From: a virus
IMG/VR virus record: IMGVR_UViG_3300026544_000002
Coordinates: 38,492 to 102,491 of that record
Length of the DNA stretch: 64,000 nt
Reading direction: 5' to 3' (one strand)
Below are positions 2,256-56,548 of the stretch, one piece after another. The position numbers were made by a program, and so were the translations under genes. Under the pieces are notes generated by a model, which did not search any database, was not told the origin of the DNA, and saw only the letters and a program-made list of their open reading frames with translations. Positions within the stretch are counted from its first letter, which is position 1. The number at the start of each line of letters is the position of its first letter.

Positions 2256-3191
2256 ATGCAATTTTCAGAAATAGAAAATAATATCATTTTAGAATATCCA
2301 GTTGGGTCACATTTATATGGTACAAATACCAAAGATTCTGATCAAGATTTTTCTGGTATTTTCATTGCTCCTATCGATTATTATTTTGGAATGAAAGATG
2401 TTAAGGAAATAGATTTTTCAATAGCGTCAAAACATGAAAATGGAAAGAATGATAAAAATGCAATCGATAGAAAATTTTATGAATTAAAAAGATTCATAAA
2501 ATTAGCTGCTGATAATAACCCCGCAATTATAGAACAATTATTTGTACCATTAGAAATATTAATCAATTCTACTTTTAGAGGATTAGCAATTTTAAATCAC
2601 AAAGAAATATTTCTACACAAAGGATTGTATCAGCGATTTCTTGGATATGCATATTCCCAAAAAAAGAAAATGATTGTTAAATTAGATAATCATGATAAAT
2701 ATGAACATGTGAAAAAAGTATTGGAGGAAGCAAATCCGACCGATACACTGCATCATGTTAAAAATATTCTCGGAAAATATTTTGATAAAGAACATATGGC
2801 AGTTGGTGATATCAAAATACCTTTAGGTGTATTGAATAAAAAAGCATTATCGATTATTAATAAAAGATTTTCTAATATGTCACATAGGAAAGAATTGATT
2901 CGTAAACATGGTTTCGATACGAAATTCGGTTCTCACCTAATTCGTTTGACGTTAGAAGGAATCGAATTGTTGGAAACAGGAAATTTGGTTTTTCCATTAA
3001 AAGAAAATAAATTAATTATAGATATAAAAAATGGGAAATATGATCTGAAAGTATTATTAGAATTATTCGATGAATTAGAAAATAGAATCAAAAAAGCAAA
3101 AGATAATTCAGAATTACCAAAGAAACCAGATTTTGATAGAATCAATAATTTATCTATTGATTTAATATCATCATTTTTTGATAATTGTTAA
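2256..3191 (+). CDS. RlaP-like predicted nucleotidyltransferase
   Basis: The 311-aa protein carries the polymerase-beta-type nucleotidyltransferase signature near its N-terminus: G17-S18, then LYG, then SDQD with the likely metal-binding aspartates D29 and D31. The wider context, GSHLYGTNTKDSDQDFSG, matches the predicted nucleotidyltransferase family (PF10127) that includes RNA-ligase-associated RlaP. Members are thought to act in RNA repair or in adding nucleotides to RNA ends. The length fits the family. No RNA ligase is visible in this window. A much smaller paralogous signature occurs at 61924-62343. Confidence 0.75.
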   Translation: MQFSEIENNIILEYPVGSHLYGTNTKDSDQDFSGIFIAPIDYYFGMKDVKEIDFSIASKHENGKNDKNAIDRKFYELKRFIKLAADNNPAIIEQLFVPLEILINSTFRGLAILNHKEIFLHKGLYQRFLGYAYSQKKKMIVKLDNHDKYEHVKKVLEEANPTDTLHHVKNILGKYFDKEHMAVGDIKIPLGVLNKKALSIINKRFSNMSHRKELIRKHGFDTKFGSHLIRLTLEGIELLETGNLVFPLKENKLIIDIKNGKYDLKVLLELFDELENRIKKAKDNSELPKKPDFDRINNLSIDLISSFFDNC

Positions 3192-35969: not shown

Positions 35970-36046
35970 ATGGCTCCAGCGGTAGGAATCGAACCTACGA
36001 CCACAAGATTAACAGTCTTGAGCTCTACCAACTGAGCTACACTGGA
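35970..36046 (-). tRNA. tRNA-Asn (GTT)
   Basis: The - strand folds as a tRNA. The acceptor TCCAGTG pairs with CGCTGGA (one wobble). The D-arm is AGCTCAGTTGGTAGAGCT, the anticodon stem is CAAGA/TCTTG with loop CTGTTAA (anticodon GTT), and the T-arm has GTTCGATTC. CCA is encoded at the 3' end (35970-35972). It lies between a late promoter and the amidase gene, so it is co-transcribed with late genes. AAU/AAC codons are abundant here. Confidence 0.9.
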
Positions 36047-40789: not shown

Positions 40790-40864
40790 TGGAGCCGATG
40801 ATAGGACTCGAACCTACATGAAACGGTTTACAATACCGTGCCCTAGCCATTAGGTAACATCGGC
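40790..40864 (-). tRNA. tRNA-Thr (TGT)
   Basis: The - strand has acceptor GCCGATG/CATCGGC (7 bp), a D-arm with TAATGGCTA, anticodon stem ACGGT/ACCGT with loop ATTGTAA (anticodon TGT), and T-arm GTAGGTTCGAGTCCTAT. CCA is encoded. It is embedded in a late operon between protein genes. It would help decode ACA, frequent in this AT-rich genome. Confidence 0.9.
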
Positions 40865-53238: not shown

Positions 53239-53540
53239 AACATATCATTTGTCACTAGTTAAACCAAAGTCGAAAAATGTATCACAAGAAATTAGCAAAC
53301 CGAGTGGTTAAAATAAATCATCGTCCATTAGAAAACCAGAAAATTTTAATGTATCACTTAGAGAACGTAAACCGTCAATTTCAAAATGAATCAACATCAC
53401 CTTACATAAACCATACAATAAAAATGTATCACATGTATATAGAAAACCAGACGGAGAAAATGTATCACAAGAAAATAGTAAACCAGTGGGTAATTAATGT
53501 ATCACCTTTGAGAAGAAAACCACAGGGAATTAATGCATTT
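53239..53540 (+). repeat. TIGR-type array 1 (tandem interspaced guide RNA), 8 units plus terminal degenerate unit
   Basis: Units start at 53239, 53276, 53312, 53348, 53385, 53423, 53459, 53496 and 53532 (spacing 36-38). Each unit is motif 1 (consensus AATGTATCA), a ~9-nt variable segment, motif 2 (consensus AGAAAACCA) and a second ~9-nt variable segment. Variable pairs, first / second: tttgtcact / aagtcgaaa; caagaaatt / agtggttaa; tcgtccatt / gaaaatttt; cttagagaa / tcaatttcaa; acatcacct / tacaataaa; catgtatat / gacggagaa; caagaaaat / gtgggtaatt; cctttgaga / cagggaatt. The last unit starts AATGCATTT and decays. This is the most degenerate array, and it ends 100 bases before the tas start. Confidence 0.85.
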
Positions 53541-53621: not shown

Positions 53622-53640
53622 AAATAAAGGAGTAAAGAAA

Positions 53641-54696
53641 ATGGCTAAAAAAGAAACAGAAAGAAAAAAAGTGGAAGACATGAGAATTTGTTCACCGTCA
53701 GAAGATGTTGTTAATGCTCTCGAAAGTGGGCGAGAATTCCGTGATGCAACATTGGGGTGGAATGATAAGGACAAACCTGTCAAATATGTTTCCGAAGCAC
53801 ATCGAGAATATATCGCACAAAAATCACAATTGAAAATGATTGTCTCAAGTTATTATGACATGCAGAAACAGCGTGTTGCAGTCGGCAATCGAATTGTTGG
53901 TAATTTTCTTCTTCGTATCGGCGGGAAGGAAACTATGGAAAAAGATGTGAAAGATGATAAATTGATTGCTGAAATGGTGAAAGAATATGCAACATTGGCA
54001 GATGCTTTCACCAGTCCGAAAAAAATCAGAAGTTTCTTTGAAACACAACGAGAAGGATTCATCACAACTGAACATGAATTAACAATGATGAATACTTATC
54101 TCAGTTATCGTGGTGCGGAAAAGAAATTGATGAAAGATATTCAAAGATATGTGGAAGATTTCCCTCTTTATCAAAATTTTCTGAAACATGTCAATGGATG
54201 TGGACCGGCTATGTCAGCGTGTATCATTTCATGTTTTGATCCATACAAGGCAAAACATGTTTCTTCATTTTGGAAATATGCTGGATTGGATGTTATTGAT
54301 GGTGAGGGGAGAAGTAAGAAAAAACGTCATCAAATTGTTGAGAAATACGTAGACAAGAATCAAGATATTGATTGGAAGTTTTCAATCTCTTACAATGCTT
54401 TTTTGAAAGCAAAATTGTGTGGTGTTCTCGCAACTTCTTTCCTTCGTGCTGGAAAAGATTCTAGTAAGTATAATACCATTTATTATAATTACAAAGAACG
54501 AATTTCAAACAATGAAAGACATAAAGAAAAATCAGATGGTCATCGTCATGCAATGGCTATGCGGTATATGATCAAAATGTTTGTTGCTGATGTGTGGGTA
54601 CAGATGAGAAGCATCGAAGAGCTTCCGGTAACAAAACCATATCATGAAGCCAAACTGGGGTTGGTTCATGGCGGGACAGAAAGTAAAGCAGCATAA
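53641..54696 (+). CDS. tas: Tas protein (TIGR-associated, Nop/IS110-like), nuclease-less TasA type
   Basis: The 351-aa start is set at 53641 by AAAGGAG. A longer frame from 53593 crosses the palindrome. Residues 50-175 are helical, probably coiled coil. Residues 176-320 resemble the Nop-like/IS110 C-terminal RNA-binding region: VNGCGPAMSACIIS (184-197), SFWKYAGLDV (209-218), a basic SKKKRH loop (225-230) and HAMAMRYMIKMFVADVW (303-319). No HNH motif and no convincing RuvC acidic triad is visible, so it fits the nuclease-less TasA group. By family knowledge, Tas binds ~36-nt tigRNAs and targets DNA with two short spacers. Four 36-bp-period arrays surround it, the nearest just upstream. An IS110 transposase relic is less likely: no DEDD N-domain and no insertion-sequence ends are seen. 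Confidence 0.8.
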   Translation: MAKKETERKKVEDMRICSPSEDVVNALESGREFRDATLGWNDKDKPVKYVSEAHREYIAQKSQLKMIVSSYYDMQKQRVAVGNRIVGNFLLRIGGKETMEKDVKDDKLIAEMVKEYATLADAFTSPKKIRSFFETQREGFITTEHELTMMNTYLSYRGAEKKLMKDIQRYVEDFPLYQNFLKHVNGCGPAMSACIISCFDPYKAKHVSSFWKYAGLDVIDGEGRSKKKRHQIVEKYVDKNQDIDWKFSISYNAFLKAKLCGVLATSFLRAGKDSSKYNTIYYNYKERISNNERHKEKSDGHRHAMAMRYMIKMFVADVWVQMRSIEELPVTKPYHEAKLGLVHGGTESKAA

Positions 54697-54705
54697 ATCT
54701 TTTTA

Positions 54706-54751
54706 AATCTGAATCGTATCAAATGAGAAATTGTTTGATACGATTCAGATT
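54706..54751 (+). terminator. Perfect 18-bp hairpin after tas
   Basis: Arms 54706-54723 and 54734-54751 are exact complements with a 10-base loop. The stem ends two bases before TIGR array 2. CTCTTT follows rather than a U-run. It may separate the tas message from the array transcript by termination or by RNase III-type processing. Confidence 0.6.
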
Positions 54752-54752
54752 C

Positions 54753-55014
54753 TCTTTATCATAGTATAAAAGGTAATCCAATAATTTATAATGTGTCGGT
54801 AGATCGAAGAGAACCGGATATGAAAAACGAATCGAAATTTCAGAGAAAACCTGCGGGAAGCAATGTATCTCTATTCCAAAGAAAACCACTGGAAGGTAAT
54901 GTATCGTTAGATTGAAGAAAACCAGAAAGTTTTAATGTATCATTCAGAACGAGAAAACCAGTTACTTGCAATGTATCATTCTGCTTTAGAAAACCAGTTC
55001 AAGAAAATGTTTCA
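54753..55014 (+). repeat. TIGR-type array 2, 7 units plus terminal half unit
   Basis: Units start at 54753, 54790, 54826, 54862, 54898, 54934, 54970 and 55006. After the first, spacing is exactly 36. Variable pairs: tagtataaa / ataatttat; gtagatcga / gatatgaaa; aaatttcag / gcgggaagc; ctattccaa / ctggaaggt; ttagattga / gaaagtttt; ttcagaacg / gttacttgc; ttctgcttt / gttcaagaa. The last motif AATGTTTCA runs into the ribosome site of the gene at 55036. The first two or three units are the most degenerate, the last four the most regular, so the leader-distal end is best preserved. Confidence 0.9.
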
Positions 55015-55035: not shown

Positions 55036-55587
55036 ATGTATAACGTGACACCTGGAATATACACGAAAAAAGAAGCAGCAGGATTAGCTGCAAAAGCTTT
55101 TGCATTGGAAGAAAGGAATAGTTGGATTGTTTGCCACAAAACAGTCAAAATAGATTCAAATATTTCTATGATGTATTATAAACCTGTTCCTCAAGATAAT
55201 TTGAAGGAAGCAAAAGAAGATGGATGGGTGGTCGTATCATTCAAAATAAAAAAAGAAGATAAATGTATTGATTATCAATCATCTGCTATCATCAACCCTC
55301 GTCGATGTGATCTTGCCAAAAAGGAAGATCCAATCAAATTATCAACAGATTTTTATTCTATTATAATTGAATTTCGAGATATTAACAAATCTGCTAATTT
55401 TGATATGGTAGAAAATTACTGCATGGATAGTGATTTTGACTATTCAACAAATGAATCTGTGGGTAAAATCATTGTCAAAACAATCACGAAACATAATGCA
55501 AATGATATCATTTCCGATATCTTAGACATGACTGCTCCTGTTCATGTAAGTGAATGGGAAGGAAGAAAAGTGACAATGAGAATCTGA
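55036..55587 (+). CDS. Hypothetical protein downstream of TIGR array 2, 183 aa
   Basis: The ATG follows AAAGGAG directly behind the last array motif. The N-terminus (TKKEAAGLAAKAFALEERNSWIVC) is helical. The rest is mixed alpha/beta, with ENYCMDSDFDYSTNES, an acidic loop. No family recognised and no nuclease motif seen. The position between two arrays and after tas makes it a candidate accessory gene, but co-location is the only support. Confidence 0.6.
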   Translation: MYNVTPGIYTKKEAAGLAAKAFALEERNSWIVCHKTVKIDSNISMMYYKPVPQDNLKEAKEDGWVVVSFKIKKEDKCIDYQSSAIINPRRCDLAKKEDPIKLSTDFYSIIIEFRDINKSANFDMVENYCMDSDFDYSTNESVGKIIVKTITKHNANDIISDILDMTAPVHVSEWEGRKVTMRI

Positions 55588-55595
55588 TTTATTAG

Positions 55596-55641
55596 ATTCA
55601 TTCTGACACAAATACATGGTAGTATTTGTGTCAGAATGAAT
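55596..55641 (+). terminator. Perfect 20-bp hairpin after the 183-aa gene
   Basis: Arms 55596-55615 and 55622-55641 are exact complements with a 6-base loop. No U-run follows. The 85-base stretch from here to array 3 has a short frame (55636-55716) of doubtful status and nothing else recognised. Confidence 0.6.
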
Positions 55642-55726: not shown

Positions 55727-55988
55727 AATTTATCAAGAGGGTATAGAAATCCTAATGTATGGAATGTATCATTTTCCAAAAGAAATCCAGCACGTCTCAA
55801 TGTATCAAACATTAGAAGAAAACCATAAAATTATAATGTATCAGAACCCTAAAGAAAACCAAATATGTATATTGTATCAAAACTAGCAAGAAAACCAACG
55901 AGCTTGTAATGTATCATTTACTGGTAGAAAACCAACCTTCGAAAATGTATCAAAGAGAAAAAGAAATCCTAAAATGCAAAATGAATCA
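55727..55988 (+). repeat. TIGR-type array 3, 7 units plus terminal half unit
   Basis: Units start at 55727, 55763, 55799, 55835, 55871, 55908, 55944 and 55980, with spacing 36 except one of 37. Variable pairs: agagggtat / aatgtatgg; ttttccaaa / gcacgtctc; aacattaga / taaaattat; gaaccctaa / aatatgtat; aaactagca / acgagcttgt; tttactggt / accttcgaa; aagagaaaa / aaaatgcaa. The final motif AATGAATCA is followed by ACTTTGAAAAGGAG, the ribosome site of the MESH1-like gene. Motif 1 is nearly invariant in this array. Motif 2 varies at one position (AGAAATCC in three units). Confidence 0.9.
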
Positions 55989-56008: not shown

Positions 56009-56548
56009 ATGATCGAAACAGCTATATTTTATGCAACCAAAAAGCATGAAAATCAAAAAAGAAAATACATCAATATTCCTTATATTGTTCATCCTTTAAC
56101 TGTCATGGAAATCGTCAGAGGATGTGTACAAAATCACACAGAGGAAATGTTATGTGCAGCAGTTTTACATGATACTGTAGAAGATACAGATGCAACTATC
56201 GAAGAAATACATAAAATTTTCGGAAAAACTGTTGCTGAATATGTACATTATCTTTCTGATATTTCTAAACCAGAAGATGGAAACAGAAGAACAAGAAAAG
56301 AAATAGATAGAATTCATATTTCAAAAGGACCCGCAGAAGTTCATTCAATCAAATTAGCTGATCTTATAGATAATTCAGCATCAATTCTTTTATACGATCC
56401 TAACTTTGCTAAAATTTATATTAAAGAAAAAGAAGCATTATTAGAAGTTCTGACAAAAGGAGATTCTTCTTTAATATATGCAGCAAATGAAATTGTAAAA
56501 AATTTCTATCTTCAAAGAATCAAAAAAGGATGGAATGGAATAAAATGA
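56009..56548 (+). CDS. HD-domain (p)ppGpp hydrolase-like protein (MESH1/SpoT-type)
   Basis: The 179-aa protein has the HD signature of RelA/SpoT/MESH1 hydrolases: ATKKHENQKRKYINIPYIVHP (9-29) with H28, LHDTVEDTD (53-61) with H54-D55, FGKTVAEYVHYLSD, and KLADLIDN (115-122). Length is that of stand-alone small alarmone hydrolases. The known role is removal of the 3' pyrophosphate of (p)ppGpp, which would dampen the host stringent response. It sits directly behind array 3. Its stop overlaps the next start (ATGA). Confidence 0.8.
   Translation: MIETAIFYATKKHENQKRKYINIPYIVHPLTVMEIVRGCVQNHTEEMLCAAVLHDTVEDTDATIEEIHKIFGKTVAEYVHYLSDISKPEDGNRRTRKEIDRIHISKGPAEVHSIKLADLIDNSASILLYDPNFAKIYIKEKEALLEVLTKGDSSLIYAANEIVKNFYLQRIKKGWNGIK

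What the first reader, a model, noticed from the sequence alone, without database searches (positions are those of the whole stretch)
53641..54696. Tas effector without a nuclease domain
No HNH motif and no convincing RuvC acidic triad is visible in the 351 residues. The effector would therefore bind but not cut. A binder could silence competing phage promoters, block replication, or regulate host or phage genes. The neighbouring unknown gene at 55036 might supply an activity. Both functions are inference.
Basis: partly seen in the sequence, partly recalled or inferred. Interest (0 to 1): 0.8.

Follow-up and report, generated by a model that had tools for sequence, protein, structure and literature searches.

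The report
Nuclease-free phage TasA with guide arrays
A phage carries a small RNA-guided DNA-binding protein (TasA, of the TIGR-Tas systems) that has no cutting domain, together with three arrays of paired guide sequences; this nuclease-free form is already described and is the commonest form of the system, so the only open point is what it targets, and I found no target.

Summary
Window 53641-54696 encodes a 351-aa Tas protein. It passes NCBI's curated TIGR-Tas model, matches solved TasR and TasH by sequence and fold, and lies among three co-directional TIGR arrays (22 dual-spacer units, 9-nt repeats, mostly 9-nt spacers). No nuclease is present. The solo-Nop core starts at about residue 58, where nearly all of 51 relatives begin. 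Residues 1-57 are a short, low-confidence, poorly conserved helical extension, too short for RuvC or HNH. The model shows no beta strand in residues 1-175. This is TasA, which Faure et al. 2025 (PMC12045711) named as the commonest TIGR effector, with function unknown. 'Binds but does not cut' is therefore the expected reading, inferred by homology and not shown here. New here are negative results: 22 guides show no target in the phage's own genome above a mis-paired control; 573 guides from this and related loci show none in 1.93 Mb of TasA-phage DNA; an integrase occurs in only 2 of 21 records. These weaken self-regulation and integrase-helper models. ORF 55036 has no detectable homologue, so its proposed partnership is unsupported. 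Best guess: an RNA-guided roadblock against other genetic elements, with the host not excluded.

The parts
53641..54696 (+). tasA-like gene, 351 aa, TIGR-associated Nop-domain protein without nuclease
53641..53811 (+). residues 1-57: N-terminal extension found in almost no relative; predicted low-confidence helices; function unknown
53812..54693 (+). residues 58-351: coiled coil plus Nop/Transposase_20-like RNA-binding core
53628..53632 (+). ribosome-binding site AGGAG of tasA
   Evidence: sequence
53239..53540 (+). TIGR sub-array A, 8 units upstream of tasA (edge AATGTATCA, loop AGAAAACCA), partly degenerate; ends in a 3'-truncated edge
54753..55014 (+). TIGR sub-array B, 7 units between tasA and ORF 55036; runs into the leader of ORF 55036
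55727..55988 (+). TIGR sub-array C, 7 units between ORF 55036 and the HD-domain gene; runs into the leader of 56009
54706..54751 (+). perfect hairpin just after the tasA stop and just before sub-array B; terminator-like
55596..55641 (+). perfect 20-bp hairpin just after ORF 55036, before sub-array C; no T-run
55036..55587 (+). 183-aa protein of unknown function between sub-arrays B and C; no homologue found

Best explanation
The gene is a TasA: the nuclease-free effector of a TIGR-Tas system carried by a large tailed phage of myovirus type. By analogy with solved TasR, two TasA protomers hold one 36-nt tigRNA cut from the three arrays. Spacer A pairs with one strand, and spacer B with the other strand, of an adjacent 18-bp DNA target (top strand = spacer A, 0-2 nt, reverse complement of spacer B). 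The target is unwound and bent but not cut. The most likely use is as a programmable roadblock to transcription or replication of other genetic elements (competing phages, prophages or plasmids), or of host DNA. Shown here: the Tas/Nop core, the absence of a nuclease domain, the dual-repeat arrays, and no detectable self-targeting. Inferred: the dimer, processing, DNA binding, bending, and the purpose.
For: Curated TIGR-Tas model passed. Sequence homology to TasR (9mty, E 1.5e-14) and TasH (1.4e-5), rising to 1e-34 and 1.3e-24 with the family profile. Top Foldseek hits are all TasH/TasR, then IS621 and Nop5. There are 22 dual-spacer units in three arrays. Arrays of the same design were parsed beside the tas gene in about 40 loci, and the edge repeats co-vary at positions 3-6 (C-G 467, T-A 85 units) and 2-7 (G-C 407, G-T 106, A-T 71); the window has T3-A6 and A2-T7. 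Relatives start at residue ~58 and lack nuclease domains. No HNH family match anywhere in the phage record. No self-target above control.
Against: No target was found anywhere, so the roadblock role is unsupported directly. Exact hits of four guides in IMG/VR were 0, 3, 4 and 0, in unrelated contigs. TasA binding to DNA has not been shown in the source paper, only tigRNA binding. Structural evidence is a predicted model. A cutting activity supplied by another protein is not excluded.
Confidence: 0.6

Rival explanations
1. Self-regulator: TasA binds sites in the phage's own genome to silence or time phage genes.
For: The arrays and gene are phage-encoded, co-directional and lie in leaders of neighbouring genes.
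Against: 22 guides against the whole 102,491-bp record: best-mismatch distribution {2:3, 3:9, 4:9, 5:1}, control {1:0.1, 2:2.8, 3:10, 4:7.8, 5:1.3}. Over 573 guides in this and related loci, self hits at 2 mismatches are 17 against 15 and 21 in controls.
Confidence: 0.1
2. Host-directed: guides target the bacterial chromosome (defence genes, prophages) for host takeover or counter-defence.
For: Guides match neither the phage nor related phages, so targets lie elsewhere; a host is one obvious place.
Against: Host unknown, so no test was possible; no positive evidence.
Confidence: 0.2
3. DNA-bending helper for integration or packaging, as Faure et al. suggest for integrases.
For: TasR bends target DNA by nearly 180 degrees (PMC12045711).
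Against: No tyrosine integrase in this record and only 2 of 21 TasA phage records have one; no serine recombinase in any. Records may be incomplete. Many different guides do not fit one attachment site.
Confidence: 0.04
4. A cryptic or trans-supplied nuclease makes it a cutter after all.
For: Faure et al. note some TasR have degenerate RuvC; residues 1-57 are uncharacterised.
Against: Residues 1-50 are too few, all helical and low confidence; no beta strands in 1-175; no nuclease family in the protein; no HNH family match in the record; no neighbour conserved across loci other than artefact ORFs and genes shared by a few similar phages.
Confidence: 0.04

Closest known systems
TasA of TIGR-Tas systems (e.g. 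FpTasA, Faure et al. 2025, PMC12045711)
   Same: Solo Nop domain, no nuclease, dual-repeat TIGR arrays with 8-12-nt repeats and about 9-nt spacers, phage-borne
   Different: Here a 57-residue N-terminal extension precedes the core; edge repeat AATGTATCA uses T-A/A-T pairs where most relatives have C-G/G-C; three short sub-arrays split by genes
TasR (TaTasR, PDB 9mty)
   Same: Nop core homologous over residues 157-334; same two-strand guide logic expected
   Different: TasR has an N-terminal RuvC and cuts; absent here
TasH (PDB 21kl, 9vzx, 9w02-9w04)
   Same: Nop core homologous over residues 174-340
   Different: TasH has an N-terminal HNH and cuts; absent here
IS110/IS621 bridge-RNA recombinase
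   Same: Related RNA-binding fold; weak Transposase_20 match
   Different: No DEDD/RuvC recombinase domain, no bridge RNA seen; NCBIfam IS110 model far below cut-off (18.7 against 140 bits)
Type IV and V-M CRISPR
   Same: Would be RNA-guided interference without cutting
   Different: Unrelated proteins, single-strand guide, no shared ancestry; analogy only

Membership tests
TIGR-Tas, TasA | Nop-domain Tas core | tested here: met
   NF052498 132.7 bits over cut-off 100; TasR/TasH in PDB by sequence and fold
TIGR-Tas, TasA | Adjacent dual-repeat array: two alternating 8-12-nt repeats with about 9-nt spacers, 36-nt period | tested here: met
   22 units in three arrays, 9-nt repeats, mostly 9-nt spacers
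TIGR-Tas, TasA | Box C/D-like motifs matched between edge and loop, with supporting covariation | tested here: met
   Edge A2-T7, loop G2-C7; family-wide edge covariation at 2-7 and 3-6
TIGR-Tas, TasA | No HNH or RuvC domain | tested here: met
   relatives lack the N-terminal part too
TIGR-Tas, TasA | Array starts with 5'-truncated edge, ends with 3'-truncated edge, then terminator | tested here: inconclusive
   First and last edges are degenerate; hairpins precede arrays B and C rather than follow arrays
TIGR-Tas, TasA | Array processed to 36-nt tigRNAs bound by the protein | not testable with these tools
   needs small RNA-seq of pulled-down protein
TIGR-Tas, TasA | tigRNA-guided binding to dsDNA on both strands | not testable with these tools
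   needs binding assay; no natural target found
TasR / TasH (nuclease Tas) | N-terminal RuvC or HNH nuclease | tested here: not met
IS110 transposase | N-terminal DEDD catalytic domain and passing the IS110 family model | tested here: not met
   NF033542 18.7 bits against cut-off 140; no catalytic domain in the model

The most novel reading that the evidence does not exclude
The 57-residue N-terminal extension, found in almost no other relative, is a docking or effector segment that recruits another phage or host protein to tigRNA-marked DNA, making this TasA an RNA-guided recruiter rather than a passive roadblock.
Probability: 0.1. Interest if true: 0.65.

Novelty: new member of a known kind. 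Interest (0 to 1): 0.33.

Why it matters
TasA is the commonest TIGR effector, yet its job is unknown and no natural target had been identified in the source paper. A phage with 22 guides, a complete tas gene and about 50 relatives is a usable test case. If TasA blocks DNA by guided binding alone, it is a compact phage-made interference system that needs no cutting. The negative target scans here narrow the choices: targets are not detectable in the carrier phage or in related TasA phages, and in most carriers no integrase was found for TasA to help.

Tried and rejected
Hidden nuclease in residues 1-175: rejected by family alignment, family models and fold. ORF 55036 as a partner: no homologue in phages, IMG/VR or other tas loci; single-sequence model useless, pLDDT 34. 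Self-targeting: no signal. Cross-targeting among TasA phages: the raw count at 2 mismatches looked high (275 against about 206 in controls), but counted once per guide and gap it is not specific to gaps 0-2 or to the expected strand geometry, so not claimed. Exact target scans of four guides in IMG/VR: 0, 3, 4, 0 hits in contigs of different GC and genes, one of the seven hit loci with a single weak protein match to this phage; treated as chance. Conserved neighbour genes: the largest clusters are ORFs antisense to arrays, an artefact of the 36-nt period. DNA-level search for near relatives of the locus in phages: none.

Full report
Observation. The ORF at 53641-54696 is real: 351 aa, ATG start with AGGAG eight bases upstream. 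The window is part of a 102,491-bp virus record with terminase, contractile tail sheath and baseplate genes, so it comes from a large tailed phage.

Identity. PHROG 4285, labelled 'transposase', matches with E 3.8e-37, and Pfam Transposase_20 only weakly. The curated NCBIfam model NF052498, TIGR_Tas_endo, matches with 132.7 bits against a cut-off of 100 over its whole length, residues 64-323. In this protein the match lies entirely in the nuclease-free core, so the word endonuclease in the model's name is not evidence of cutting. By sequence the nearest solved proteins are TasR (9mty) and TasH (21kl and others). With a profile of 35 relatives the E-values fall to 1e-34 and 1.3e-24.

No nuclease. 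Searches of IMG/VR and GTDB genomes gave 51 loci encoding relatives. Nearly all of them start within a few residues of position 58 of the window protein and align from there. The longest apparent N-terminus, in L015, is the array itself read as protein. L044 has an extra N-terminal segment of unknown type. The 57-residue extension of the window protein has no match in the other loci. The AlphaFold2 model has pLDDT 81; residues 1-50 are low-confidence helices and residues 52-171 are helical, with no beta sheet where RuvC or HNH would sit. Foldseek against the PDB lists TasH and TasR first, then IS621 and IS110-type recombinases, then Nop5. No HNH family match was found in the record. Acidic residues conserved in the family (D73, E146, E160, D200, E326) are spread over the coiled coil and Nop core; I could not test whether any lie together in space.

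Arrays. Three sub-arrays on the plus strand, at 53239-53540, 54753-55014 and 55727-55988, hold 8, 7 and 7 units: edge AATGTATCA, spacer A, loop AGAAAACCA, spacer B. Arrays of the same design were parsed beside the tas gene in about 40 loci. Across them edge positions 3 and 6 are C-G in 467 units and T-A in 85; positions 2 and 7 are mostly G-C, G-T or A-T. The window has T3-A6 and A2-T7, the AT-rich version of the same pairs. This agrees with the edge-repeat pairing described for TasR (PMC12045711). Two strong hairpins lie between genes and arrays; only the first looks like a terminator.

What is known. Faure et al. 2025 (PMC12045711) define TasA as the solo-Nop effector, say it is the commonest, show that it binds 36-nt tigRNA, and say that its function is unclear: possibly blocking transcription or replication, or helping integrases.

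Target tests. From the published cut positions (8-nt 3' overhangs) I derived the target as spacer A, 0-2 nt, reverse complement of spacer B on one strand. In the phage's own record the best matches of the 22 guides do not differ from mis-paired controls. Using 573 guides from this and related loci against 1.93 Mb from their records, self hits at two mismatches number 17, with 15 and 21 in two controls. Excess hits in other phages were not specific to the expected geometry. Exact scans of four guides in IMG/VR gave 0, 3, 4 and 0 hits in unrelated contigs. Fragmentary records, imperfect pairing or unsampled targets could hide real sites.

Neighbours and integrase. The product of 55036 has no homologue in annotated phages, IMG/VR or the other tas loci, so a partnership is unsupported. 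A tyrosine integrase occurs in 2 of 21 TasA-phage records and not in this one; no serine recombinase occurs in any. This speaks against an integrase-helper role in most carriers.

Mechanism. Most likely TasA dimers carry a tigRNA to an 18-bp site in foreign or host DNA and hold it open and bent, blocking polymerases. The protein family, lack of a nuclease domain and arrays are shown; dimer, processing and binding are inferred from TasR, TasH and FpTasA; the purpose is inference.

Verdict. New member of a known kind. Interest is moderate, because the role of TasA is open and this locus is a workable test case, but nothing here goes beyond the published class.

Noticed in passing
window 56009-56548: HD-domain gene directly after sub-array C matches the hydrolase part of RelA/SpoT (NCBIfam TIGR00691 E 2.9e-24, well below the full-length cut-off): possible small alarmone hydrolase of the phage.
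   Followed up: no
L009, L011, L013, L025, L034, L052 and others, array regions: Because 36 nt is 12 codons, arrays often form long false ORFs on the opposite strand (repeats such as GFLxxxGSL) that look like a conserved neighbour gene. In L015 the array reads through into the tas frame and fakes an N-terminal domain.
   Followed up: yes
L044 4581-5000 (202-kb virus record): A 477-aa Tas relative with about 140 extra N-terminal residues matching no Pfam family: a candidate new Tas fusion domain.
   Followed up: no
L043 2741-6478: Relative with the same edge repeat AATGTATCA and a very large array (51 units parsed, many more edges).
   Followed up: no
window 53285-53311 and 53468-53495: Units A1 and A6 have near-identical spacer A (CAAGAAATT, CAAGAAAAT), which may hint at unit duplication in an array without known adaptation genes.
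   Followed up: no
window 2256-3191: RlaP, an RNA-repair-pathway nucleotidyltransferase family (Pfam E 1.6e-24).
   Followed up: no
window 35971-36046 and 40790-40864: Two tRNA genes (Asn-GTT, Thr-TGT) in the phage.
   Followed up: no
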